Below are positions 26,975 through 38,731 of a stretch of DNA of 64,000 nucleotides, piece after piece. The translations under genes and the position numbers were made by a program. Numbering within the stretch: position 1 is the stretch's first letter; every line of letters starts with the position of its first letter. The notes below the pieces were generated by a model, which worked only from the letters and a program-made list of their open reading frames with translations, was not told the origin of the DNA and did not search any database. This DNA is from Microvenator marinus (GTDB lineage: Bacteria; Myxococcota_A; Bradymonadia; Bradymonadales; Bradymonadaceae), in contig NZ_CP042467.1 in the NCBI RefSeq assembly GCF_007993755.1, forward strand, positions 3,000,001 through 3,064,000, given 5' to 3'.

Positions 26975-29900
26975 TTAGCACTCGTCTAACTCATCTTTGG
27001 CAGCGAGATCGGCCTCACCCAGCAAACTGTAGACAGCGGGCAACACCACCAGGGTAAGCAGCGTAGCAGTTATAAGTCCACCAATCACCACAGTGGCCAA
27101 GGGACGTTGGACCTCGGCACCTGCCGTGCTTGAAATTGCCATCGGTAGGAACCCAATTCCGTCGGTCAGGGCTGTCATCAAGACGGCCCTAAGTCTTAAG
27201 CTCGCTCCCTTCTTGGTAGCATCAAAGAGCGCAAGTCCCTCTCGTTGGAGTTCCCGAATGTAGGTGATCATTACTACGCCATTGAGTACTGCAATTCCCG
27301 AAAGTGCAATAAACCCGATAGCAGCCGAAATCGAAAAAGGCATATCCCGCATCCACAGCGCAAACACTCCACCAACAGCCGCCATGGGGATGTTAAGGAA
27401 AATGATAAAGGCCGGACGTGCAGAGCCAAACATTGTGAAGAGCAAGATAAATATCAGCATCAGTGCGGCTGGAACGGCAATAGCGAGGCGTGCGCTGGCC
27501 GCTTGCAGATTTTCGAACTGTCCTCCCCAGGTCACAAAGTACCCCGGCACAAGCTTTCCCTCCGCTCGGATCTTTTCCTGAGCCTCCGCAACGAATCCAG
27601 CGAGATCGCGGTCTCTTACATTGACCTGTATGGTCATTCGTCGTTGTGCGCTTTCTCGACTCACAACCGCGGGGCCCTCATCCAGTCTGACGTCGGCTAC
27701 CTGGCCGAGCGGAACTTGGGCACCGTCTGGGGTGGTGATTAGAAGTCTTCGTAGCACATCCGGGCTTGAGCGTGCGTGTTCTGCCAGGCGTACCTGAAGC
27801 GCAAATCTTCGCTGCCCTTCAAACACCACACCAACTTCTTTTCCTCCGACCGCGGATACCACGTCGAGCACGTCGGATGCGTTGAGATCGTAGCGTCCCA
27901 GTGCATCTCGGTTCACGATCACCCTTAGCAGTGGAAGTCCGGCCACTTGGTCAGAGTTGACGTCAGCTGCACCTTCGATTTGCGACAAGATCTGTGAGAT
28001 TCGATCACCGGTGCGTTCGAGTTCAGCGAAATCAGGACCGTAGAGGTTCACGGCTACATCAGAGCGAACCCCGCTGATCAACTCGTTGGTACGCAATTCA
28101 ATCGGCTGAGAGAAGGAGTAGTTCTGACCTGGGACCTTCTCGAGTTCCTTTTCTATAGCGCGCACTAGTTCGGATTTCTTTTCGGCGCGTTTCCAATCCT
28201 CGACAGGATTCAACATGACGTAGATATCTGAGATTTCTACCCCCATAGGATCGGTCGCTATCTCGGCTCTTCCGGTTCGCGAGATAATGGTTTCGATCTC
28301 GTCAGGAAAAGCCTCCAGGAGTGTTCGTTCGATGCGACCAGTTGCTCTGACCGACTCTTCGAGCGAGACCGAGGGAGGGCGGACTGCTTGCATAGCAATC
28401 GCGCCTTCATCGAGAGTTGGAATGAATTCGGCGCCCATATTGAATGCCATGGTTACACCTCCCAACATAACCACGATGGCACCACCAATGATGAACCCCC
28501 GAAAACGAAGGGCGAATTCAAGTACTGGTTCGTAGAGTAACCGCGCGCCACGAGCTAGAAACGGCTCCTTTTCAACAAGTCCGTTTCGAAAGATCCAGGT
28601 GGAAGCAGCCGGGACCAATGTAACGGCTAAGATGAGTGCTGCGGCGAGCGCCGAGAGGACCGTAATAGCCATTGGGCGGAACATTTTCCCTTCAATTCCT
28701 TGAAAAGAGAGGATGGGAACATAGACGATCATGATGATGGCTGTTCCGAAAAGCACTGGCCTGAGAACTTGAAGGGTAGCGAGTCGGACCTCTCGCCGCA
28801 CACCATCCCCTTTTGCGCCTGATTCCGAGAGCCTTCGAGAAACGTTTTCGATGACAACGATTGCGCCATCGATGATGAGCCCAAAGTCTAGCGCACCAAG
28901 ACTCATAAGGTTGCCAGATACTCCGAAGAACGACATTGAGATGAACGTGAAAAGTAGGGAGAGTGGAATCAAGGCCGCCACGAGAAGTCCCCCTCGAAGA
29001 TTTCCAAGCATCAGAAGCAAAACAACGATAACGAGAACGCCACCTTCAATTAGGTTTGTGGCCACAGTTCGGATGGTTCTCTCCACTAGGACTGAGCGGT
29101 CATAGTAGGTTTCGATCGTTACGCCATCGGGCAAACTCGATTCGATCTCAGCTAGCCTGATCCGTACAGATTCAGCGACTTCCCCGGAGTTTTCCCCCAT
29201 CAACATCATAACAGAAGCACTGACAATCTCCCCACGTCCGTCACGTGTAACCGCGCCTTGTCGAATGACGGGAGCGAACTCAACGTTGGCGACATCACGA
29301 ACAAAAATGGGAGTACCGTGCCTCGTAGTGATGCGAACATTGCGAACGTCGTCGAGGCTTGAAATCAGTCCTTCTCCACGAATGACACGTTGCTCACCGG
29401 CTCTTACGATGTATCCTCCGCCCTCGTTGGCGTTGTTTTCCTCTAACGCTTCAAATACGTCTCTGAGACTTAGACCGAGAGCGGTCAGCCTCTCAGGGTC
29501 AACCTGCACCTCGTAAGTTTTTAACTCACCGCCAAACTGGTTGATCTCAACCACGCCGGCAATGGGGCGCAGTTGGAACGTCACAAACCAATCGAGCAGA
29601 GTCCGCAACTCCATGAGAGTGTAGCACTGGTCCGTGTCCGGCCCTTCTGGGGCACACATGGGCTCTCCACGGACCTCAAACTGGTAGATTTCACCTAATC
29701 CCGTGGAAATCGGTCCCATTTCTGGGGATCCATATCCGTCGGGAATGGACTCACGTGCCTCGGTGAGTCGTTCTGAAACCAGTTGTCGCGCGAAATAGGT
29801 GTCTGTCCCTTCTTCAAAAACCACCGTCACGGCCGAGAGTCCGAATCTGGAGAGACTACGAACCTCCTCGACCTTCGGGAGTCCACTCATCACCGTTTCA

Positions 29901-30106
29901 ACCGGCATGGTGACGTATTGCTCGACCTCGACCGGACCAAGTGAGGGTGCGTTGGTGAGAATTTGGACTTGGACGTTGGTTACGTCGGGCACCGCGTCGA
30001 TCGGCAAATGTTGTGCGGCGCGAACACCGATAGCCCCGATCAAGAGCACAACAAAGATCACGAGGAAGCGATTTCGCAAACAGAATAAAACGAAACTATT
30101 CATCAT
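26975..30106 (-). CDS. czcA: CzcA-type heavy-metal efflux RND pump
   Basis: 1043 residues, the full length of the HME-RND family, with 12 predicted membrane helices and two large periplasmic domains. Helix 4 carries DFGLIIDGAIVVIEN, the proton-relay motif of CzcA-type (Zn/Co/Cd, HME1/2) pumps; CusA-type Cu/Ag pumps differ at this site. Family knowledge: a homotrimer exchanges protons for divalent metal and pumps it to the outside with the adaptor and outer-membrane channel encoded upstream. It is the last gene of a five-gene minus-strand cluster, starting six bases after the adaptor gene. The metal cannot be fixed exactly from sequence. Confidence 0.92.
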   Translation of the reverse strand: MMNSFVLFCLRNRFLVIFVVLLIGAIGVRAAQHLPIDAVPDVTNVQVQILTNAPSLGPVEVEQYVTMPVETVMSGLPKVEEVRSLSRFGLSAVTVVFEEGTDTYFARQLVSERLTEARESIPDGYGSPEMGPISTGLGEIYQFEVRGEPMCAPEGPDTDQCYTLMELRTLLDWFVTFQLRPIAGVVEINQFGGELKTYEVQVDPERLTALGLSLRDVFEALEENNANEGGGYIVRAGEQRVIRGEGLISSLDDVRNVRITTRHGTPIFVRDVANVEFAPVIRQGAVTRDGRGEIVSASVMMLMGENSGEVAESVRIRLAEIESSLPDGVTIETYYDRSVLVERTIRTVATNLIEGGVLVIVVLLLMLGNLRGGLLVAALIPLSLLFTFISMSFFGVSGNLMSLGALDFGLIIDGAIVVIENVSRRLSESGAKGDGVRREVRLATLQVLRPVLFGTAIIMIVYVPILSFQGIEGKMFRPMAITVLSALAAALILAVTLVPAASTWIFRNGLVEKEPFLARGARLLYEPVLEFALRFRGFIIGGAIVVMLGGVTMAFNMGAEFIPTLDEGAIAMQAVRPPSVSLEESVRATGRIERTLLEAFPDEIETIISRTGRAEIATDPMGVEISDIYVMLNPVEDWKRAEKKSELVRAIEKELEKVPGQNYSFSQPIELRTNELISGVRSDVAVNLYGPDFAELERTGDRISQILSQIEGAADVNSDQVAGLPLLRVIVNRDALGRYDLNASDVLDVVSAVGGKEVGVVFEGQRRFALQVRLAEHARSSPDVLRRLLITTPDGAQVPLGQVADVRLDEGPAVVSRESAQRRMTIQVNVRDRDLAGFVAEAQEKIRAEGKLVPGYFVTWGGQFENLQAASARLAIAVPAALMLIFILLFTMFGSARPAFIIFLNIPMAAVGGVFALWMRDMPFSISAAIGFIALSGIAVLNGVVMITYIRELQREGLALFDATKKGASLRLRAVLMTALTDGIGFLPMAISSTAGAEVQRPLATVVIGGLITATLLTLVVLPAVYSLLGEADLAAKDELDEC

Positions 30107-30112
30107 GACCCT

Positions 30113-31342
30113 TCAATGTGCGTGACCGTGGCCGAGTTGACCACGAATCATTTCAGACTTGAGTAGGAACGCCCCTTCGACCACCACCTTGGAGTCGGCA
30201 CTGAGGCCGTCGATCACTTCTACGAAGTCTTTACTCTCCGCTCCGAGCGAGACGGGCTGAGCCTTGAATGTTCCAGATTCATCTTCGGAAACGAACACAA
30301 CCTTCTTGTCGTCGAGAGTCTGAATCGCCACAAGTGGCACCAAAAGCGTGGTGCCTTGTGTCCCTGTTTCAGACAAAGACAAACTACCAAAGAAGCCTGG
30401 ACGAAGAAGACCATCGGGATTATCGACTTCAACCCGAATTGGAAGTGAGCGCGTCGATTCTTCCAAAACAGAGCCCACGTAGTCCACTTTTCCAGTCCAT
30501 GTACGCCCCGGAAAGGCACCGAGACTCAGAGTCGCCGGCATTCCAACGCTTACCCCAGAGACTGTTCGCTCTGGTACCTGACCCACAATCCATAGTGTTG
30601 AGAGGTCCGCCACAATGAAGAGGGTGTCGCTCGACGTTGCACTTTCTCCGCGCGTTGCGTGTCGAGCAATAATGGTTCCATCGATGGGTGACACGATTGT
30701 CATATCTGGACCGTTTCCACCGTTCAAACCGAAGACAAGGAGCCTTGACCTCGCGGCCTCGAGCTCAGCATTTGCTTGGTCAAAAGCGAGTTCGGACTCG
30801 AGCAGGCTACGCTCAGAACTGATCCCTTCCTTTCGAAGTTGCCTTTGGCGCTGCTGATTTCGCTCGGCCACGTCCTTCATGGCTCTGGCACGCCTTAGTT
30901 CTGCGCGCGCTTCACCAAGCTCCACGCTTCTGAGCTCGACAAGCTTATCACCGGCCTTCACAACGTCGCCTTTCTGGACGTCCACACTCAGCACCTTGCT
31001 CGCCACCAGCGGACTGATGTGAGCGACACGGTCCGGGTTAAGCTCCACCTCTGCCGAGATTTCAAGACGCTGTGAGAGAGTACCTTGTTGTGGCGTCTGC
31101 AGACGAATTTCGGCGCGTTTCATAGCCTCACTGGTCAAACGCAGTGCATCTTCACGGATTTCACCGTCACCCTCGTCGTGCGCATGCCCGTCACCCTCGT
31201 GCGCATGCCCGTCACCCTCGTCGTGCTTGTGTTCCTCCTCGGCTTGTTCCTCCTCCTTTGAGTGTCCCTTTCCGGAGTCACAACTCTGAAGCAGTACGAC
31301 CAAGGTCAGCCACAATCCGATTCTCTTGCTGATATGAGTCAT
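30113..31342 (-). CDS. czcB: CzcB-type efflux adaptor lipoprotein with His-rich metal-binding head
   Basis: 409 residues. ATG 31342 was chosen (GGAGG seven bases upstream) and gives a lipoprotein signal with Leu-Gln-Ser-Cys. Directly after it lies a Glu/His/Asp-rich tract (about residues 27-58) with the repeated unit HAHDEGDG, a likely metal-capture sequence. The membrane-fusion parts follow: a barrel start, lipoyl half (PLVASKVLSVDVQKGDVVKAGDKLVEL), coiled-coil hairpin, second lipoyl half (TIVSPIDGTIIARHATRGES) and a C-terminal domain. It ends in Gly-His-Gly-His-Ala-His. It overlaps czcC by four bases and should link CzcA to CzcC. Confidence 0.9.
   Translation of the reverse strand: MTHISKRIGLWLTLVVLLQSCDSGKGHSKEEEQAEEEHKHDEGDGHAHEGDGHAHDEGDGEIREDALRLTSEAMKRAEIRLQTPQQGTLSQRLEISAEVELNPDRVAHISPLVASKVLSVDVQKGDVVKAGDKLVELRSVELGEARAELRRARAMKDVAERNQQRQRQLRKEGISSERSLLESELAFDQANAELEAARSRLLVFGLNGGNGPDMTIVSPIDGTIIARHATRGESATSSDTLFIVADLSTLWIVGQVPERTVSGVSVGMPATLSLGAFPGRTWTGKVDYVGSVLEESTRSLPIRVEVDNPDGLLRPGFFGSLSLSETGTQGTTLLVPLVAIQTLDDKKVVFVSEDESGTFKAQPVSLGAESKDFVEVIDGLSADSKVVVEGAFLLKSEMIRGQLGHGHAH
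31165..31225 (-). repeat. Tandem repeats encoding the His/Asp-rich head of CzcB
   Basis: A short unit of about 18-21 bases (GTCACCCTCGTCGTGCGCAT and a variant lacking one CGT) recurs three times, encoding the GDGHAHDE-type repeats. Unit number may vary by slippage, altering the number of metal-binding histidines. Confidence 0.7.
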
Positions 31343-32613
31343 TTGTCCTCCGAAACTATCCAAAGTTCTTGTCCGGCTAGCCCCTCAAGTTCGGCCGCCG
31401 TTTCGTAGTAGGCTGTAAGCGCGTCCATATGTTGGTCCGACGCCTCCAAGAGGCGTTCGCGCATCTGTGAGACTTGATGGATGTCGACCTCTCCAAGGTC
31501 CCAAGAGCGTTGCAAAAGACTCAGGTTCTTTTCGATCTGTGGGATGACACCTGCTTCGTAAATCGCCACGCGTTCAACGGCTGCATTCAGCGCGCTCACC
31601 TTCTCTCGAAGCTCAGCCTTGAGCTTTAGATGGGTAGCCATCTGCTCTTGATTTGCGATTTCAAGCTCGGCAGCAGCCATCGCCCGACCTTCTTCATTCA
31701 GGTTGAAACTGGGCAGTGGAACGGAGAGGCTGAGCATCCAGATATGCGCAGGATCTTCAGGTGCTGCGGCAGCCTCTCTCGCGTAGCTGACCCCAAGAGT
31801 TGGATCCGGCCATAGAGCTCGTTCTTCGAATTCAAGCTTTGTTCTGCTCGCGTCGAGCGCTTCGTTACTTGCGCGCACCGACGGGTGATTTTCTGACATT
31901 GAGGCAATCAGTTCATCGACGGCTGGAGCCGGTCGAACCTCGGGAAGGTTTCCAGAAATCGTTGGAAGGTCGGAGCTTTCCCAGCCCATTGTGGTTGCGA
32001 GTTGCACCCGCAGCGAGTCTTCGAGTTGTCTTGCACCAACTTCAAGCTCGCGTGCCCTTGCGAGATCCGCCTCGGCAACCAGTAGTGCCAAAGGCGACTC
32101 CTCACCCACATCAATCTGTTTGCGTACAATATCGCGCACCGAAAGCGCATAGGAAACAAAACGCTCCGCTTGTTCAATTCGCTTTCGAGCGAGAAGTATA
32201 TCGACATAGAGTCGATGCACTTCGACGTGTACCTTCCACTGCGACTCGGCTAGCTCAGCTTGGGATCTAGAGATGTGTCGCGCGGCGAGCTTCCGCCGAA
32301 GTGTGGCCTTACCTCCGATTTCAAACTCTTGCTGCAGACCAACTTCAAACTCGAGCCCAGTTCCACGAGGCAACGTCCGCCCTCCTGCAGAAATTGACAG
32401 CTCGGGATTCTTCTGGAGCGAGTTTTCTGCGCCTAACTTCTGAGCACGGGCAAGACCGACCTCGCCTTCGGCCCTTTTGATATAAGGTGAATTCGAGTGC
32501 GCAAAGCTCAATAGCTCAGGTAGCGATAGCGCCTCGGCGCTCGCGCTCGACACGAAAATACTATTAACGATAGTAATTACGAGCCAAATTTTAATGTAAG
32601 ACAGAAGACCCAA
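31339..32613 (-). CDS. czcC: CzcC/TolC-family outer-membrane efflux channel
   Basis: 424 residues from a TTG codon at 32613 with AGGAG upstream. The signal peptide ends Ala-Ser-Ala-Glu-Ala. The outer-membrane efflux protein repeats are visible: two halves of long Ala/Glu/Arg-rich helices and short strands (SPYIKRAEGEVGLARAQKLGAENSLQKNPELSISAGG near the start, and a second PDPTLGVSYARE in the middle). Family knowledge: trimeric channel that docks on the CzcAB complex. It is the first of the three pump genes and overlaps czcB by four bases, with the repressor/protease genes just upstream. Confidence 0.9.
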   Translation of the reverse strand: MGLLSYIKIWLVITIVNSIFVSSASAEALSLPELLSFAHSNSPYIKRAEGEVGLARAQKLGAENSLQKNPELSISAGGRTLPRGTGLEFEVGLQQEFEIGGKATLRRKLAARHISRSQAELAESQWKVHVEVHRLYVDILLARKRIEQAERFVSYALSVRDIVRKQIDVGEESPLALLVAEADLARARELEVGARQLEDSLRVQLATTMGWESSDLPTISGNLPEVRPAPAVDELIASMSENHPSVRASNEALDASRTKLEFEERALWPDPTLGVSYAREAAAAPEDPAHIWMLSLSVPLPSFNLNEEGRAMAAAELEIANQEQMATHLKLKAELREKVSALNAAVERVAIYEAGVIPQIEKNLSLLQRSWDLGEVDIHQVSQMRERLLEASDQHMDALTAYYETAAELEGLAGQELWIVSEDK

Positions 32614-32628
32614 GTGAACTCCTAGCTT

Positions 32629-33618
32629 TTAGAGGTGAAGAAGTTGCTCAACTGATACGTGTACGTAGTCGAGCACGCCCAGGTTATCAACATGAGGGAT
32701 ACACATCGCAAGGAGCGCTAAGATCAAGCAGGCCCTATAGCCCGGCCCTGAAGAAAGTCGCTCGTCGCCATGTAAGAGAAGAGCCAAACGAAGCTTGAGT
32801 GCCGAGCCAGCGCCCGTCAGTGCGACCAAAGATGGTTCAGGATTCTCGCAGCGAAATCGCGCCGCATTCAGAATTCCCTCAGCTAGAGCCAGCGGGTCGC
32901 CTCCGTGATGAACTGCCTCTCTGTCGCAAACCGCCTCTCGAGCCGTTCTCCATAGCTCGAACTCACGTCGCAGATATTTCCCAAGTGGACTAATCGCGAG
33001 AGTGAGGCGCACCAAAAAGTTTCGGAAGGTGTCCCGGCTCTTGATGTGAGCGTGCTCATGAAGAAGGGCAGCACGAAGCATCGCATCGTCAGCATGGCAC
33101 ACAAAACACGCATCGATCACGACTCGTGGTTTAAGAAACCCATAGGTATAGACTGGTTCTGGTGAGTGATGCACCACATCTACTTTCAAAGTTCTCAAAC
33201 GCTCGTCTGCAGAGATTATGCTCTGGACTCTACGAAGAGCAAGGTCACCAGGATCCAGAACTTCGTAGTTTGGCCGTGGCATTTCCCTCCAAAGCCTGTA
33301 CCCGACCAGTCCAACTATGCCCGCAACGAGAAACCCAACTAGCAACATTGAATCCGTGCACCCTTCGATGCCGTGATCAACCAAACACAAATCGACAAAT
33401 TCTCGGGGTTCAATTTGATGAATCGCAGAAGATACCAACCAAGTAAGCGGTATCAAGGTTGGCGCCACGAGCCAAGCAAAGGTCGTTTCAGAGCCAAAGC
33501 CAGTTAGCGACCCTTTTTGGCGCTTGTTTTTCAGTACGGCCAGACTGAGCGCGCTAGAGACAACGACAATCAAGAGAGTCAGGAATATCGCCGCAATTGG
33601 AAAAAGCAATTCACCCAT
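32629..33618 (-). CDS. M56-family (BlaR1-like) membrane metallopeptidase
   Basis: 329 residues from ATG 33618, with GAGG eight bases upstream; it overlaps the repressor stop by eight bases. Several membrane helices precede and follow the zinc site HEHAH (about residues 188-192, in LLHEHAHIKSRDTFRNFLVR), which matches the HExxH of BlaR1/MecR1-type proteins. The large C-terminal penicillin-binding sensor of BlaR1 is missing; only a final hydrophobic segment remains. Family knowledge: a signal switches on the protease, which leads to cleavage of the BlaI-type repressor. It probably relays metal or envelope stress to the efflux operon (inference). Confidence 0.88.
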   Translation of the reverse strand: MGELLFPIAAIFLTLLIVVVSSALSLAVLKNKRQKGSLTGFGSETTFAWLVAPTLIPLTWLVSSAIHQIEPREFVDLCLVDHGIEGCTDSMLLVGFLVAGIVGLVGYRLWREMPRPNYEVLDPGDLALRRVQSIISADERLRTLKVDVVHHSPEPVYTYGFLKPRVVIDACFVCHADDAMLRAALLHEHAHIKSRDTFRNFLVRLTLAISPLGKYLRREFELWRTAREAVCDREAVHHGGDPLALAEGILNAARFRCENPEPSLVALTGAGSALKLRLALLLHGDERLSSGPGYRACLILALLAMCIPHVDNLGVLDYVHVSVEQLLHL

Positions 33619-34033
33619 CGCCACGCCTCTTTCGCCGAATCATTTCCTCCAAAAAGTCGAGTTCCCCCTCGTCAGCTTCCGCGACTCTTTCAACAAGTAG
33701 CGCAACGGCGGCCTCACGACCAACCGGTGGAAGACTCTCCATGACTTCCCGAGTCATAGCCTCAATGAACTCACCATTACTCATCGCTGGTTGATAGATG
33801 AACCTACGTCCGTCTTTGTGTCGCGTGAGCAACCCTTTGTCGAATAAGCGACTCACCGTCGTCATAACCGTGGTGTACGCAATCTCTCGGCGCTTTTCGA
33901 GGAGTTGATGAACGTCGGAAACGCTAAAGTCAGCCCATCCCCGTTCCCAGACAGCTTCCATGATTTCGGCCTCGAGTTCAAAAAGTGTGGTCCGAAGTCC
34001 ATCCTGCTCTGGTCGAATGCGAATACCTTTCAT
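33611..34033 (-). CDS. BlaI/MecI/CopY-family transcriptional repressor
   Basis: 140 residues. The N-terminal winged helix is typical (LTTLELEIMEAVWERGWADF-like start, with a DVHQLLEKRREIAYTTVMTTVSRLFDKGLLTRHKDGRRFIY recognition region). The C-terminal part is the helical dimerisation domain. Family knowledge: the dimer represses its own operon and is removed by a partner M56 protease. It is the first gene of the minus-strand cluster repressor - protease - czcC - czcB - czcA, so it very likely controls the pump. The protease gene overlaps its stop. Confidence 0.9.
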   Translation of the reverse strand: MKGIRIRPEQDGLRTTLFELEAEIMEAVWERGWADFSVSDVHQLLEKRREIAYTTVMTTVSRLFDKGLLTRHKDGRRFIYQPAMSNGEFIEAMTREVMESLPPVGREAAVALLVERVAEADEGELDFLEEMIRRKRRGDG

Positions 34034-34196: not shown

Positions 34197-34490
34197 ATGA
34201 AAAATCTGCTTTTCGCAATCATCGCCATCATCAGCACAACGGTCTTTGTACCGAGCAAAGTTGAAGCCAAATGCTATCGGTTCTCGGACGCGCCATCGGA
34301 CGTGTTCGTATGCGTGGGTAAGAACGGCTCGGATTCGTTTGACGACCGCAAGGCAGCTAAGAAGATTTGTGATGAGAAGGCTGGCAAGAATTGCGGCAAC
34401 GTAGGGAGTCACTCGTCAAGTTGCCACTCCAATTCCAACCTCTGCTACGACGAGACCGGCAAGGCTCATCGCAGCCTCAAAGACTACTAG
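34197..34490 (+). CDS. Small secreted cysteine-rich protein
   Basis: 97 residues from ATG 34197, with AGGAG seven bases upstream. A signal peptide of about 24 residues ends at Val-Glu-Ala. The mature 73 residues contain six cysteines (in KCYRF, VCVGK, ICDEK, NCGNV, SCHSN and LCYDE), suggesting three disulphides, and are rich in Lys, Ser and Asp. No family recognised. It is divergent from the metal-resistance operon, with starts 163 bases apart, and its stop overlaps that of the convergent RCC1 gene by four bases. A role in metal or envelope stress is only a guess from position. Confidence 0.65.
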   Translation: MKNLLFAIIAIISTTVFVPSKVEAKCYRFSDAPSDVFVCVGKNGSDSFDDRKAAKKICDEKAGKNCGNVGSHSSSCHSNSNLCYDETGKAHRSLKDY

Positions 34491-35659
34491 TCTCGAGCGC
34501 TCGCTGAATGCGACCACGGACCATCTATAACGGTCGGAACAGTTGAGTCCACCAACCGGCCCCAACATTTGACCTGGTCATCCTCAGTGATTGCGCAGGA
34601 AGTCGAGGCGCCGGCCGCAATGCGTGTTGCTCCGCCAATCCCCTCGACCCTTATCGGCGTGGGTTCACACGCTCCACCAGGACAAAGCCCGCTCGGTGGT
34701 TGATAGGAGTCGGGGTCGGTCATCTCGACACCACCGCTGGCAAGTATGGGAGCGACTCCGATTTGTCCTGAGGTGCTTTGCCCCCAACAATGTACGTCTC
34801 CGGTGCCTGAGAGCGCGCAATAATGAGTCCCTCCGGACACTACTTGAACGGCCGAGGGCACAGGCGATGTTGACTCCCAGGGGTTCACGATATCGGTATG
34901 TCCGGCGCCCAACTCACCAAGAGAATTACTGCTGCCCCAACACTTCAAAGCGCGGGAAGAATTGATCGTGCAGACAGTCGTTCCGTTGCCAAGGGCGAAC
35001 GATTCGATGGAGCCTATAGATTCAACAACGCCGTACTCATCCACCGACGGTCTTTTGTCGCATCTCAACTTCCCCAGGCTAGTCAGCCCGCAGGCGGATT
35101 CCCAGTTCATTCCTATGGAATTCAGGCCATTCATTTTATCAAATCTATAGTTGGAGTTGCCGCGACACGTGGTGTCCGTTCCGGAGCCCACACAGGTTGC
35201 CTCTCCGCCAGCACTCAACCAGTTTTGTTTGCCAAGCCCCAAACTCGTGGCGGCCGGTTGGCAGGCCACATCAAAGTTTCCGATATGAGTGGCGGAGCCT
35301 TCACACGCATCGGGAATGCTCACACCGATTTGCCCTTGCTCATCCGAGCCCCAGCACAACACATCGTCTGGCGTCAGCACACAGGCGTGTGAATCGCCCA
35401 CGGAAAGCTCAATAGCGTCTTGCGTTCCCGCCACAAGTACGGGTGTAACACTTTCTCTCACGCCGCTCTCTAACCCAAATTTTGGTGGTGTTTGGGCAAG
35501 CTGTCCATGGCTATTGGATCCCCAACAAAAGACCCCTTGACCAGGATCGAGTACACAGCCAAAGTCGCCCCCAAGCTTTACGTCTAGAGCACCGTCAGGG
35601 CTAGTCTGGCCGCAACTTAGGGCAAGGATAGAGAGACCAATCAGGTATTTCCAATTCAT
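34487..35659 (-). CDS. RCC1-repeat surface lipoprotein
   Basis: 390 residues. The lipoprotein signal (MNWKYLIGLSILALSCG) is followed by about six RCC1-type blades: CWGSNSHGQLAQ, CWGSDEQGQIGV, CRGNSNYRF, CWGSSNSLGELGAG, CWGQSTSGQIGVAP and a final CWGRLVD. The CWG core with disulphide-forming Cys is the form common in secreted RCC1 proteins of Myxococcota. The fold would be a seven-bladed propeller on the outer surface; function is unknown, perhaps binding or adhesion. Confidence 0.88.
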   Translation of the reverse strand: MNWKYLIGLSILALSCGQTSPDGALDVKLGGDFGCVLDPGQGVFCWGSNSHGQLAQTPPKFGLESGVRESVTPVLVAGTQDAIELSVGDSHACVLTPDDVLCWGSDEQGQIGVSIPDACEGSATHIGNFDVACQPAATSLGLGKQNWLSAGGEATCVGSGTDTTCRGNSNYRFDKMNGLNSIGMNWESACGLTSLGKLRCDKRPSVDEYGVVESIGSIESFALGNGTTVCTINSSRALKCWGSSNSLGELGAGHTDIVNPWESTSPVPSAVQVVSGGTHYCALSGTGDVHCWGQSTSGQIGVAPILASGGVEMTDPDSYQPPSGLCPGGACEPTPIRVEGIGGATRIAAGASTSCAITEDDQVKCWGRLVDSTVPTVIDGPWSHSASARD

Positions 35660-35740: not shown

Positions 35741-35782
35741 CATTGAAATCTCGGAGTTTGATTCCGGATTTTCAGGGATAAT
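35741..35782. repeat. 42-bp palindromic element, copy 1, upstream of the 35858 ATPase
   Basis: It begins CATTGAAATCTCGGAGTT and ends GGGATAAT. It carries the CGGAGTT...ATTCCGG inverted repeat, less perfect than copy 2. Copy 2 starts 74 bases later, so both lie on the same face of the helix (seven turns). Confidence 0.7.
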
Positions 35783-35814
35783 TTGCATATTCTCGGACAT
35801 TGAGGGATATTTAT

Positions 35815-35856
35815 CATTGAAATCTCGGAGTTCAACTCCGAATTTTCGAGGATAAT
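35815..35856. repeat. 42-bp palindromic element, copy 2, overlapping the ATPase ribosome-binding site
   Basis: TCGGAGTT-C-AACTCCGA is a perfect 8-bp inverted repeat, extended by AAAT/ATTT after one bulged base. The GAGG at 35848-35851, inside the element, is the ribosome-binding site for the ATG at 35858. A bound protein or a folded mRNA would directly block translation or transcription of the ATPase gene. Confidence 0.75.
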
Positions 35857-35857
35857 C

Positions 35858-37000
35858 ATGAAACTAGCTAGACAGAACGCAAAATCACGCGTGCATACTC
35901 TAATGCAAAACTTCCCAGTCGTGGCCATCATCGGTCCTCGACAGGTCGGAAAGACAACCCTTGCCCGTGAAATCGCAAAAGACTTCGATGGCGAAGTTTC
36001 TATGTTTGACCTTGAAGATCCATCCGATTTGGCGCGCCTTCAAGATGCGGGGCTCACACTCAAGCCACTAAGAGGATTGGTGATCATTGATGAGATCCAA
36101 CTTCGCCCAGATCTATTCTCCTTGCTTAGACCGCTCGCTGACCGCGAAGAATTACCGTGCCGATTCCTGATCCTCGGGAGCGCCTCTCCCGAACTCATGA
36201 CCGGGAGCGCACAGTCACTCGCCGGCCGCATCGCATACTTCGAATTGGAAAGTCTAAATCTAGCAGAGGTTGGAGAAGATAAGATGGAAGATCTCTGGGT
36301 TCGAGGAGGCTTTCCGCGGTCGTTCCTAAGTTCGAACATGGCGATGAGTTATGAGTGGAGAGAGCAGTTCATAACAACGTTTTTGGAACGCGATATCCCA
36401 CAGCTTGGCATCAACGTGCCGGCCCGGCTGATGCGGCGGTTTTGGACGATGCTCGCGCACTATCATGGGCAAACTCTGAACGCATCAGAGCTCGGCCGCT
36501 CTCTAAATGTGACCGACAAGACCGTAAGGAGCTACCTGGATATTTTGGTGTCGACATTCGTGGTTCGCGAGCTCCAACCCTATTTTGTAAACGTCTCAAA
36601 ACGGCAGGTGAAGTCGCCGAAAATCTACATTCGAGATACGGGAATCTTGCACACTTTGCTTGGCCTGGGCACCAAGGTTGCGGTTGAGCGGCACCCAAAG
36701 CTCGGTGCATCGTGGGAGTCCTTCGCAATGAACCAGGTGATTGCACAAAAGGCCGCGCGAGCCCATGAATGCTTCTTTTGGGGAACTCACTCCGGCGCCG
36801 AACTCGACCTATTGATCGTCCGAGGCGAGGAAAGGCTCGGATATGAGTTCAAGAGGACGGAGTCCCCGAGGACCACAAAATCGATGCACTCCGCCATTCA
36901 AACCTTGGAGCTGACCTCGATGTGCGTGGTTCACGCTGGACCAAAGAGTTTTCAGATGACCGAATCTATCGATGCCCTCTCAATCCACGACATCTTTTGA
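35858..37000 (+). CDS. AAA-type ATPase with DUF4143 nuclease-like C-terminus (first of two)
   Basis: 380 residues. Walker A is IIGPRQVGKTTLA (about 25-37) and Walker B LVIIDEIQ (about 73-80). A GSASPELM sensor-like loop, a helical part (TFLERDIPQL) and a winged helix (NASELGRSLNVTDKTVRSYLDIL) follow. The C-terminal DUF4143 domain has a PD-(D/E)XK-like core: SGAELDLLIV...LGYEFKRTESP. Family knowledge: widespread AAA_14/DUF4143 proteins, often mobile and of unknown role; DNA repair or defence have been proposed. The start is embedded in a palindromic element. The whole gene is intact. Confidence 0.9.
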   Translation: MKLARQNAKSRVHTLMQNFPVVAIIGPRQVGKTTLAREIAKDFDGEVSMFDLEDPSDLARLQDAGLTLKPLRGLVIIDEIQLRPDLFSLLRPLADREELPCRFLILGSASPELMTGSAQSLAGRIAYFELESLNLAEVGEDKMEDLWVRGGFPRSFLSSNMAMSYEWREQFITTFLERDIPQLGINVPARLMRRFWTMLAHYHGQTLNASELGRSLNVTDKTVRSYLDILVSTFVVRELQPYFVNVSKRQVKSPKIYIRDTGILHTLLGLGTKVAVERHPKLGASWESFAMNQVIAQKAARAHECFFWGTHSGAELDLLIVRGEERLGYEFKRTESPRTTKSMHSAIQTLELTSMCVVHAGPKSFQMTESIDALSIHDIF

Positions 37001-37041
37001 GCATTTTCACAGCGTGTGCCGTGGCTTGACTTTTTTCGACT

Positions 37042-37075
37042 CCATCGTAAATTGGTCATGACTTTTTTACGATGG
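37042..37075. promoter_or_regulatory. Inverted repeat covering the start region of the second DUF4143 ATPase
   Basis: CCATCGTAAA (37042-37051) and its exact complement TTTACGATGG (37066-37075) form a 10-bp inverted repeat with a 14-base centre. The right arm contains the possible ATG at 37072. The centre carries TTGGTCATGAC, echoed as ATGGTCAAG at the second ATG (37084). Confidence 0.7.
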
Positions 37076-37083
37076 ACCTTAAA

Positions 37084-38289
37084 ATGGTCAAGCCTCGGAT
37101 CTATGAAAATCTGCTCCTAGACCACTTTAGAAACCACCGTCAGATGGCGTTTTTGAGCGGTCCAAGGCAAGTCGGCAAGACGACCCTTTGCAAGGCCTTG
37201 ATGACCAAGGCGACGCATGCGACCTATTTGAACTGGGATATTCCCAAAGACAGGACGGCCATTCTAGGTGGTACTTCGGCAATCGCCGAGCAAGCCGGCC
37301 TAAACGAATTGAGAGCCGGACAGACCTTCGTCGGTCTCGACGAACTTCATAAGTTTGAAGGGTGGAAGAATATGCTCAAAGGGCTCTTTGACGCTTATGG
37401 AGAGCACACCCAGATACTGGTGACGGGTAGCGGCAATCTCGAGACGTTTCGCAGTGGGGGCGAAAGCCTGATGGGGCGCTATCTGCCTTATCGAATGCAC
37501 CCACTTTCGGTGGCTGAACTCAACGGCCCGCACCTTCAAGGGGAATTGATTCGTCCACCAGAGAAGCCCGAAGTTTGGGAGGAGTTGCTTGAGCTCGGAG
37601 GGTTTCCTGAGCCCTTGTTCAAAGGCGATAAGGCTTTTCATCGACGCTGGTCTAAGTTGCGCTCGCAGCAGCTTGTTCACGAAGACGTAAGGAGCCTGAC
37701 AGACATCAAAGAACTGGATCGACTCGAAGTCTTGGCCGAGCTGGTCCGCCAGCAAAGTGGACAACTTATGAACTTTAGCTCCCTCTCGAGAGATCTAAAG
37801 GTGTCACCAGACACGGTCATTCGTTGGCTCGCCACTCTTCGCTCGCTCTTCTATTGTTTTGAAGTCCCTCCGTGGCACAAGAACATCGCGCGAGCTTTAC
37901 GCAAGCAGCCTAAGTACTACCTTTGGGATTGGTCGATTGTGCGCGATAGCGGCGCCAGAAATGAAAATCTTGTGGCATCGGCTCTACTCAAAGCCACCCA
38001 CACATGGACCGATCTTGGGCTCGGAGATTTTGGATTGCACTTCATTCGGGACAAAGAGCAAAACGAGGTCGATTTTCTGGTAACGCGGGATGATGCGCCG
38101 TGGTTTCTAGTGGAGGTGAAGACCTCGAAGGGCCGTCTGGCTCCCGGACTGCTGCGATATCATGAGGCCTTAGGCACGCTTCATGCCTTTCAAGTGACGT
38201 TTGAAATGGACTATGTAGATAGAAGCGCCTTTGATGGTAACAAGCCAATCATTGTCCCGGCAAAGACATTCCTCTCCCAACTGGTATAG
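37084..38289 (+). CDS. AAA-type ATPase with DUF4143 nuclease-like C-terminus (second)
   Basis: 401 residues from ATG 37084; an alternative ATG at 37072 lies in the palindrome and adds four residues. Walker A is LSGPRQVGKTTLC near residues 25-37, and Walker B is FVGLDELHK. The middle helical part has LVHEDVRSLTDIKELDRLEVLAELV. A winged helix (NFSSLSRDLKVSPDTVIRWLATL) precedes the nuclease-like core NEVDFLVTRDDAPWFLVEVKTSKGR. It is a different subfamily from the preceding gene: identity is low outside the motifs. The same arrangement of a palindrome at the start suggests similar control. Function unknown. Confidence 0.9.
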   Translation: MVKPRIYENLLLDHFRNHRQMAFLSGPRQVGKTTLCKALMTKATHATYLNWDIPKDRTAILGGTSAIAEQAGLNELRAGQTFVGLDELHKFEGWKNMLKGLFDAYGEHTQILVTGSGNLETFRSGGESLMGRYLPYRMHPLSVAELNGPHLQGELIRPPEKPEVWEELLELGGFPEPLFKGDKAFHRRWSKLRSQQLVHEDVRSLTDIKELDRLEVLAELVRQQSGQLMNFSSLSRDLKVSPDTVIRWLATLRSLFYCFEVPPWHKNIARALRKQPKYYLWDWSIVRDSGARNENLVASALLKATHTWTDLGLGDFGLHFIRDKEQNEVDFLVTRDDAPWFLVEVKTSKGRLAPGLLRYHEALGTLHAFQVTFEMDYVDRSAFDGNKPIIVPAKTFLSQLV

Positions 38290-38318: not shown

Positions 38319-38731
38319 ATGAATACTGAGCTCACATGCACCTGCGGCGAAGTCCGCCTAAGAGTTGATGGCAAACCAATCCTAGCGGCTGAATGCCATT
38401 GCAACTCGTGTCGCGAAGCGGGCGCGCGCCTGGGGGCTTTGCCCAACGCTCCGACGCTCTTGTCGCCAAGTGCTGCAATACGCCGGTCTTCTTGGAGTTT
38501 AAAGGAGGACACTGGATGAGTGTCTATTCGGTCGTGTGGCCCGCCAGTACCTTGCCTCCTATGGAGTTGCGGACCATGACCAGCGACCTACCCGACTCAA
38601 CTCTGCTCGATGAGACAATTCCAAACAAGAAACACCAATCGATTGCGTTCTTCGCCAAATTGTTGTGGGCGTGGGCAGCCATGGGTTTCAGGGCGCCTGA
38701 CGTGGATGTGAACGGCGAGATCACGGCCTGA
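38319..38731 (+). pseudogene. Broken GFA/CENP-V-family gene (internal deletion with frameshift)
   Basis: From ATG 38319 the frame encodes a GFA zinc-site start (CTCGEVRLRVDGKPILAAECHCNSCREAGARLGALPNAP) typical of glutathione-dependent formaldehyde-activating-like proteins. In a different frame downstream (to stop 38731) comes the family's C-terminal half, DALVAKCCNTPVFLEFKGGHWMSVYSVVWP. The two halves join near 38458, and about 30 residues that normally lie between (ending in TRRVVA-like sequence) are missing. The deletion shifts the frame, so the first frame stops at 38519. Both halves are well preserved, suggesting a recent event or a sequencing error of unusual size. Confidence 0.7.

What the first reader, a model, noticed from the sequence alone, without database searches (positions are those of the whole stretch)
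35741..37084. Two unrelated DUF4143 ATPase genes each begin inside a palindrome
The 35858 gene has a 42-bp palindromic element twice, the second copy containing its ribosome-binding site. The 37084 gene has a 10-bp inverted repeat over its start, with one possible ATG in the right arm. The sequences differ, but the architecture is the same. This suggests autoregulation by the ATPase's own winged helix or a recognition/insertion site for a mobile gene family.
Basis: partly seen in the sequence, partly recalled or inferred. Interest (0 to 1): 0.65.

Follow-up and report, generated by a model that had tools for sequence, protein, structure and literature searches.

The report
ATPase-nucleases that read their own promoter
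A very common but uncharacterised bacterial ATPase-nuclease gene (a candidate phage-defence gene) carries a palindrome at its own start whose bases change hand in hand with amino acids in two parts of the protein, so the protein almost certainly binds, and probably switches off, its own promoter.

Summary
The palindromes are real. Gene 1 (35858-37000) has two copies of a 37-bp element (35741-35777, 35815-35851); gene 2 (start 37084) has two tandem 32-bp palindromic units (37027-37090). The genes are distant paralogues (27% identical), not unrelated. In 219 clusters of DUF4143 genes (<70% identity) a strong palindrome lies within 60 bp of the start in 108/217, against about 1-3% in most other positions. 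113 of 272 genes carry a version of gene 1's element, CCNTGNAA-N21-TTNCANGG.

Scanning half-site bases against protein columns gave two couplings. Bases 3 and 6 follow residues 312 and 311, a loop of the C-terminal nuclease-like domain. Bases 12-14 follow residues 219-221, the start of the winged-helix recognition helix. The pairings follow amino acid-base chemistry (Gln/Asn-A, His-G, Asp-C, Ala/Val-T; Lys-GG, Pro-AA). They exceed tree-based simulations, and four of five predict held-out genes well above guessing. So the protein recognises its own promoter element; autorepression is the likely purpose (inferred).

Both proteins match PDC-S01, an abundant, unvalidated phage-defence candidate. 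No binding experiment exists.

The parts
35741..35777 (+). 37-bp palindromic element, copy 1 of gene 1 (CATTGAAATCTCGGAGTTTGATTCCGGATTTTCAGGG)
   Evidence: no-mismatch match to the genome pattern
35815..35851 (+). 37-bp palindromic element, copy 2 of gene 1 (CATTGAAATCTCGGAGTTCAACTCCGAATTTTCGAGG); extended arms 35811-35855; contains the GAGG ribosome-binding site
35858..37000 (+). gene 1: AAA_14 (STAND-type) ATPase + winged helix + PD-(D/E)XK-like domain (DUF4143), 380 aa
36512..36520 (+). codons 219-221 (T D K), start of the winged-helix recognition helix; coupled to half-site bases 12-14
36788..36793 (+). codons 311-312 (H S), loop of the nuclease-like domain; coupled to half-site bases 6 and 3
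36716..36853 (+). stretch with the PD-(D/E)XK-like catalytic residues E287, D317, E330, K332, all present
37027..37058 (+). gene 2 unit A, 32-bp imperfect palindrome TGAC...GGTCA; overlaps promoter-like TTGACT-16-TAAATT (37026-37053)
37059..37090 (+). gene 2 unit B, 32-bp imperfect palindrome TGAC...GGTCA; covers the start codon 37084
37084..38289 (+). gene 2: AAA_14 ATPase + winged helix + DUF4143 (alternative upstream ATG 37072)

Best explanation
Each DUF4143 protein is a sequence-specific DNA-binding protein whose target is a repeat element built into its own promoter. Shown by co-variation: in the gene 1 family each half-site of a 37-bp palindrome is read twice, by a loop of the PD-(D/E)XK-like C-terminal domain (residues 311-312, bases 6 and 3) and by the start of the winged-helix recognition helix (residues 219-221, bases 12-14). 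Inferred: two protomers sit on the two half-sites, and because the element covers the promoter, the start codon or the ribosome-binding site, binding blocks expression, so the ATPase-nuclease keeps itself at a low level (autorepression). Inferred further: in the STAND-type cycle, nucleotide exchange or a sensed signal releases the protein, which derepresses the gene and frees the nuclease-like domain. Gene 2's branch appears to use the same principle with a tandem 32-bp palindromic unit; its contacts were not analysed.
For: Palindromes pile up at the start of DUF4143 genes: 108/217 clusters in the last 60 bp against about 1-3% in most other bins; 114 observed against 6-10 in shuffles. 113/272 genes share the 37-bp element, free base 3 symmetric in 105/113. 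Scan of half-site positions against 375 protein columns: base 3-residue 312 z 10.4, base 6-311 z 6.5, bases 12-14-residues 220/221/219 z 5.7-7.7. Code: Q/N312-A 22/22, D-C 10/12, H-G 3/3; K221-G13 52/56, P221-A14 75/78, D/E220-C12 16/16. Tree simulations never reach the observed values. Held-out genes: base 3 51/56 against 37/56 for guessing, base 6 39/54 against 17/54, base 13 38/54 against 17/54, base 14 42/54 against 25/54. In the genomes searched the element occurs only at these genes or their remnants. In 48 genes with the element at the ATG none has GGAG/GAGG and a -10-like hexamer lies in the right arm.
Against: No binding, footprint or expression data. Autorepression rather than activation is inferred from overlap with promoter and start only. 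Coupling 220-base 12 predicted poorly in held-out genes (27/50 against 23/50). 56 of 216 clusters show no strong repeat by these scores. The winged helix of STAND proteins is often structural, not DNA-binding (own knowledge). Model coordinates were not at hand, so whether loop and helix can face the same DNA was not checked. Gene 2's branch was described but not tested for coupling.
Confidence: 0.82

Rival explanations
1. The palindrome works as an mRNA hairpin that hides the start or ribosome-binding site (translational control), with no protein recognition needed.
For: The gene 1 palindrome holds the ribosome-binding site; symmetric base changes at base 3 would also keep a stem paired.
Against: Base identity follows specific residues of the protein, which a plain stem does not predict. 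In the abutting group the element appears to lie upstream of a leaderless transcript. Some paralogues have direct repeats instead of palindromes.
Confidence: 0.04
2. The element is the recognition or insertion site of a mobile gene family.
For: Patchy distribution and 0-19 copies per genome; relatives on plasmids and in viral contigs; decayed copies keep the element.
Against: No matching copy on the 3' side was seen in the window; the element overlaps promoter and start; no empty site was found: in 190 genomes all four sites had a gene or remnant.
Confidence: 0.04
3. The element is a substrate of the protein's own nuclease domain (cut on activation), and regulation is secondary.
For: The strongest base coupling lies in a loop of the nuclease-like domain next to the conserved E-x-D strand; the catalytic motif is kept in 214/219 clusters.
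Against: Constant cutting of its own promoter would harm the host; the overlap with promoter and start is explained by regulation alone; no cleavage data exist.
Confidence: 0.1

Closest known systems
PDC-S01 (PADLOC phage-defence candidate, single gene)
   Same: Both window proteins match PDC-S01 models (E 1e-82 and 4e-50); described as an ATPase domain fused to a PD-(D/E)XK superfamily member (PMC12988326).
   Different: No operator or own-promoter recognition is mentioned in the passages read; validation of most PDCs is reported as pending.
STAND ATPases: archaeal 2qen and 2fna, then NLRs, CED-4, Avs5
   Same: Same ATPase plus winged-helix core by fold (Z 17.3 and 16.5 for 2qen and 2fna; 13-15 for NLRs, CED-4 and Avs5).
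   Different: Here the winged helix appears to read DNA and a PD-(D/E)XK-like domain follows it; in NLRs the winged helix is structural (own knowledge).
PD-(D/E)XK nucleases (Can2/Card1, McrC, Hjc, FokI)
   Same: The C-terminal domain alone matches them best (Z up to 7.4) and keeps E...E-x-D...E-x-K.
   Different: Its base-specific loop points to the gene's own promoter element; no activity has been shown.
Self-repressing regulators with palindromic operators; RptR, a repressor of a defence island (PMC12255303)
   Same: Works like them in principle: a palindromic operator at the promoter of a defence-associated gene (RptR known here from its abstract and term counts only).
   Different: RptR is a dedicated repressor of other genes; here the effector itself carries the reading heads.

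Membership tests
PDC-S01 | match to the PADLOC profile models | tested here: met
   E 1e-82 and 4e-50 for the two window proteins
PDC-S01 | anti-phage activity | not testable with these tools
   no experiment; [quoted passage not shown]
AAA_14 + DUF4143 (Pfam) | both domains above the curated cut-off | tested here: met
   gene 1: 83.4 and 147.6 bits; gene 2: 86.8 and 96.7 bits
STAND ATPase | P-loop and ATPase plus winged-helix core fold | tested here: met
   Walker A in 219/219 clusters, required by the way genes were picked; 2qen Z 17.3 over 247 residues
PD-(D/E)XK nuclease superfamily | catalytic motif E-x-D...[ED]-x-K | tested here: met
   214/219 clusters; E287 and K332 invariant, D317 and E330 at least 90%
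PD-(D/E)XK nuclease superfamily | fold of the C-terminal domain | tested here: inconclusive
   best matches are mostly such nucleases, but Z is only up to 7.4
PD-(D/E)XK nuclease superfamily | DNA cleavage | not testable with these tools
   no experiment
autoregulated DNA-binding protein | the protein recognises an element in its own promoter | tested here: met
   residue-base co-variation, tree-simulation control and held-out prediction; no direct binding data
autoregulated DNA-binding protein | binding lowers own expression | not testable with these tools
   inferred from overlap with promoter and start

The most novel reading that the evidence does not exclude
The nuclease-like domain docks on the promoter palindrome with its catalytic face, so that one binding event both represses the gene and stores the nuclease in an inactive state; a phage or nucleotide signal releases both together (a one-gene sensor, repressor and effector). 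A stronger form is that the protein can also cut its own element once triggered.
Probability: 0.25. Interest if true: 0.9.

Novelty: new variant of a known kind. Interest (0 to 1): 0.8.

Why it matters
PDC-S01/DUF4143 is reported as one of the most abundant candidate defence families in prokaryotes, yet nothing found here describes what it recognises. The co-variation gives a concrete DNA target for each protein of the gene 1 family, names the residues that read it, and suggests that a PD-(D/E)XK-like domain serves as a base-reading head. That makes regulation, induction and nuclease control directly testable with single-residue swaps, and gives a sequence signature for true gene starts and for decayed copies.

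Tried and rejected
Literature: DUF4143 occurs in one held paper, COG1373 in seven whose titles and abstracts show no functional work on it, AAA_14 is swamped by unrelated hits; no own-operator report was found. PDB sequence search with the three-row profile: nothing at E 0.01. NCBIfam: no family. RNA hairpin as main explanation: set aside. Insertion site: set aside. Winged helix as the only reader: rejected, the outer half-site follows residues 311-312. Wing residues 236-258 showed no outstanding coupling. The gene 2 family was only described, not tested for residue-base coupling. Linking Thermus TT_P0211 to the DUF4143 gene TT_RS11170 could not be settled.

Full report
1. What is in the window. 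The window is G000:C1:3000001-3064000, in a 5.85-Mb single-contig genome. Gene 1 (35858-37000) and gene 2 (37072 or 37084 to 38289) both encode AAA_14 + DUF4143 and are 27% identical. Upstream of gene 1 a 44-nt element occurs twice, 74 nt apart, and each copy is palindromic. Around the start of gene 2 lies a 40+40 nt inverted repeat that also reads as two tandem 32-nt copies. Every one of the six DUF4143 genes of this genome has repeats directly upstream: two palindromes each for gene 1 and its 59-61% identical relatives L001 and L002 (identities), the 32-bp pair for gene 2, and four tandem units of about 22 and 23 bp for L004 and L005.

2. More than chance. Homologues were collected from other genomes: 272 genes, 219 clusters below 70% identity. 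Palindromes of score 9 or more are centred in the 60 bp before the start in 108 of 217 clusters, against roughly 1-3% in most bins further away or inside the gene; at score 11 or more it is 80 of 217 against almost none. The next two bins upstream (starting at -120 and -180) are also raised, and direct repeats are enriched from -180 to 0. Shuffled sequences give 6-10 where 114 are seen. Counting both kinds, 160 of 216 clusters have a repeat, against about 8% at -600 and -400 and 1-3% inside the gene; the count for the real starts includes the 37-bp template, which the controls did not get.

3. The shared element. In 113 of 272 genes, including gene 1, the palindrome fits CCNTGNAA-N21-TTNCANGG, exactly 37 bp in 100 of them. 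The search template fixed those letters, so their conservation is partly imposed. Base 3 was left free and is symmetric in 105 of 113 (T/T 66, A/A 25, C/C 11, G/G 3). In 44 genes the element starts 37 bp before the start codon, so that it ends exactly there. Of the 48 non-redundant genes whose element abuts or nearly abuts the ATG, none has GGAG or GAGG before the start, and the best -10-like hexamer peaks 13-12 nt before the ATG, inside the right arm. This fits a leaderless transcript whose promoter is the palindrome itself (inferred).

4. Two reading heads. For each of 24 positions in and around the half-site, mutual information with 375 protein columns was computed in 102 genes below 85% identity. 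The strong outliers are base 3 with residue 312 (z 10.4), base 6 with 311 (6.5), base 12 with 220 (7.6), base 13 with 221 (7.7), base 14 with 221 and 219 (7.4, 5.7), and base 11 with 210 (5.7); other columns stay below z 5. In the AlphaFold model (pLDDT 94.8) residues 220-232 are a helix of the winged helix and 311-312 lie in a loop before the strand that carries E315 and D317. The pairings read like textbook amino acid-base contacts: Gln or Asn 312 with A (22/22), His with G (3/3), Asp with C (10/12), Ala or Val with T; Lys 221 with GG, Pro 221 with AA, Asp or Glu 220 with C (16/16), His 220 with G (10/10). Gene 1 fits: S312/T3, H311/A6, D220/C12, K221/G13G14. Its relatives L001 and L002 have Asn 221 and GA instead of GG at bases 13-14, as expected if each protein recognises mainly its own operator.

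5. Controls. A tree was built without the columns in question and base labels were simulated along it at matched rates. The observed values (1.31, 0.90, 1.12, 1.09, 1.07 bits) exceed the highest of 200 simulations each (0.49, 0.56, 0.79, 0.63, 0.49), and also the highest value over all columns in 60 of those simulations (0.71-0.85), the base 6 pairing by the smallest margin (0.90 against 0.77). Close pairs change together: L055 (Q312, A) and L034 (H312, G) at 82.7% identity; L028 (H, G) and L029 (Q, A) at 74.7%. In 28 new genes below 85% identity to the earlier set, mostly from the class of G151, the table predicted base 3 in 51/56 half-sites, base 6 in 39/54, base 13 in 38/54 and base 14 in 42/54, against 37, 17, 17 and 25 for guessing the commonest base; base 12 gave 27/50 against 23/50 and is therefore weak. 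Two plasmid genes looked at afterwards fit where they can be read (Runella L384, Thermus L383).

6. Exclusivity. A generalised element pattern matches without mismatch in this genome only at DUF4143 promoters (5 places). A stricter pattern over 190 genomes of the class of an Ensifer strain finds four sites and none with the reversed pattern. Two precede intact DUF4143 genes, one a frameshifted copy, and one a short ATGATT... remnant whose descent from such a gene is a judgement from its first codons.

7. Gene 2. Its relatives (38-62% identical) often carry repeats with a 32-bp period before the start, for example L306, L323 and L327. In the window the two units coincide with two promoter-like sites, TTGACT-16-TAAATT and ATGACT-16-TAAAAT; two such sites in this stretch are not more than shuffles give. 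Residue-base coupling was not tested for this branch.

8. What the protein is. The ATPase and winged-helix core matches archaeal STAND-type ATPases, then plant NLRs, CED-4 and Avs5. The C-terminal domain alone matches mostly PD-(D/E)XK nucleases at modest Z, up to 7.4, and the catalytic motif is kept in 214 of 219 clusters. Both window proteins match PADLOC PDC-S01, reported as the fourth most common defence across prokaryotes, with validation pending for most such candidates (PMC12988326). One Thermus DUF4143 gene, TT_P0211, is listed with a 6.6-fold expression change in cells carrying a plasmid (PMC4406477), which hints at induction.

9. Verdict. Shown by co-variation: the gene 1 protein family recognises its own promoter element, with two domains. 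Inferred: dimer binding, repression, release by the ATPase cycle. Open: whether the nuclease-like domain can cut the element, and whether gene 2's branch works by the same contacts.

Noticed in passing
L004 (G000:C1:5548317-5551805) and L005 (G000:C1:2562833-2566324): Two further DUF4143 genes of this genome have four tandem 22- and 23-bp direct repeats ending at the promoter instead of palindromes; DNA contacts of this branch are unknown.
   Followed up: partly
G141:C1:3576798-3576834 and G164:C5:327-363: Decayed DUF4143 copies keep an almost perfect promoter palindrome although the coding part is frameshifted or reduced to a remnant.
   Followed up: partly
34487-35659: An RCC1-repeat protein gene is divergent to gene 1; on Thermus thermophilus HB27 pTT27 an RCC1-domain fragment also lies next to a DUF4143 gene (TT_RS11165/TT_RS11170). 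Possibly coincidence.
   Followed up: no
26975-34033: By eye, a heavy-metal efflux set (three genes on the minus strand) followed by what look like an M56-type membrane peptidase and a BlaI-type repressor (32629-34033), an unusual pairing if real.
   Followed up: no
38320-38731: By eye, a GFA/CENP-V-like reading frame (MNTELTCTCGEVRL...) after gene 2 seems to be broken by a frameshift near 38430; the full stretch did not translate openly.
   Followed up: no
L036, L058, L064, L110: DUF4143 genes often stand in clusters of two or more divergent copies, as in the window.
   Followed up: no
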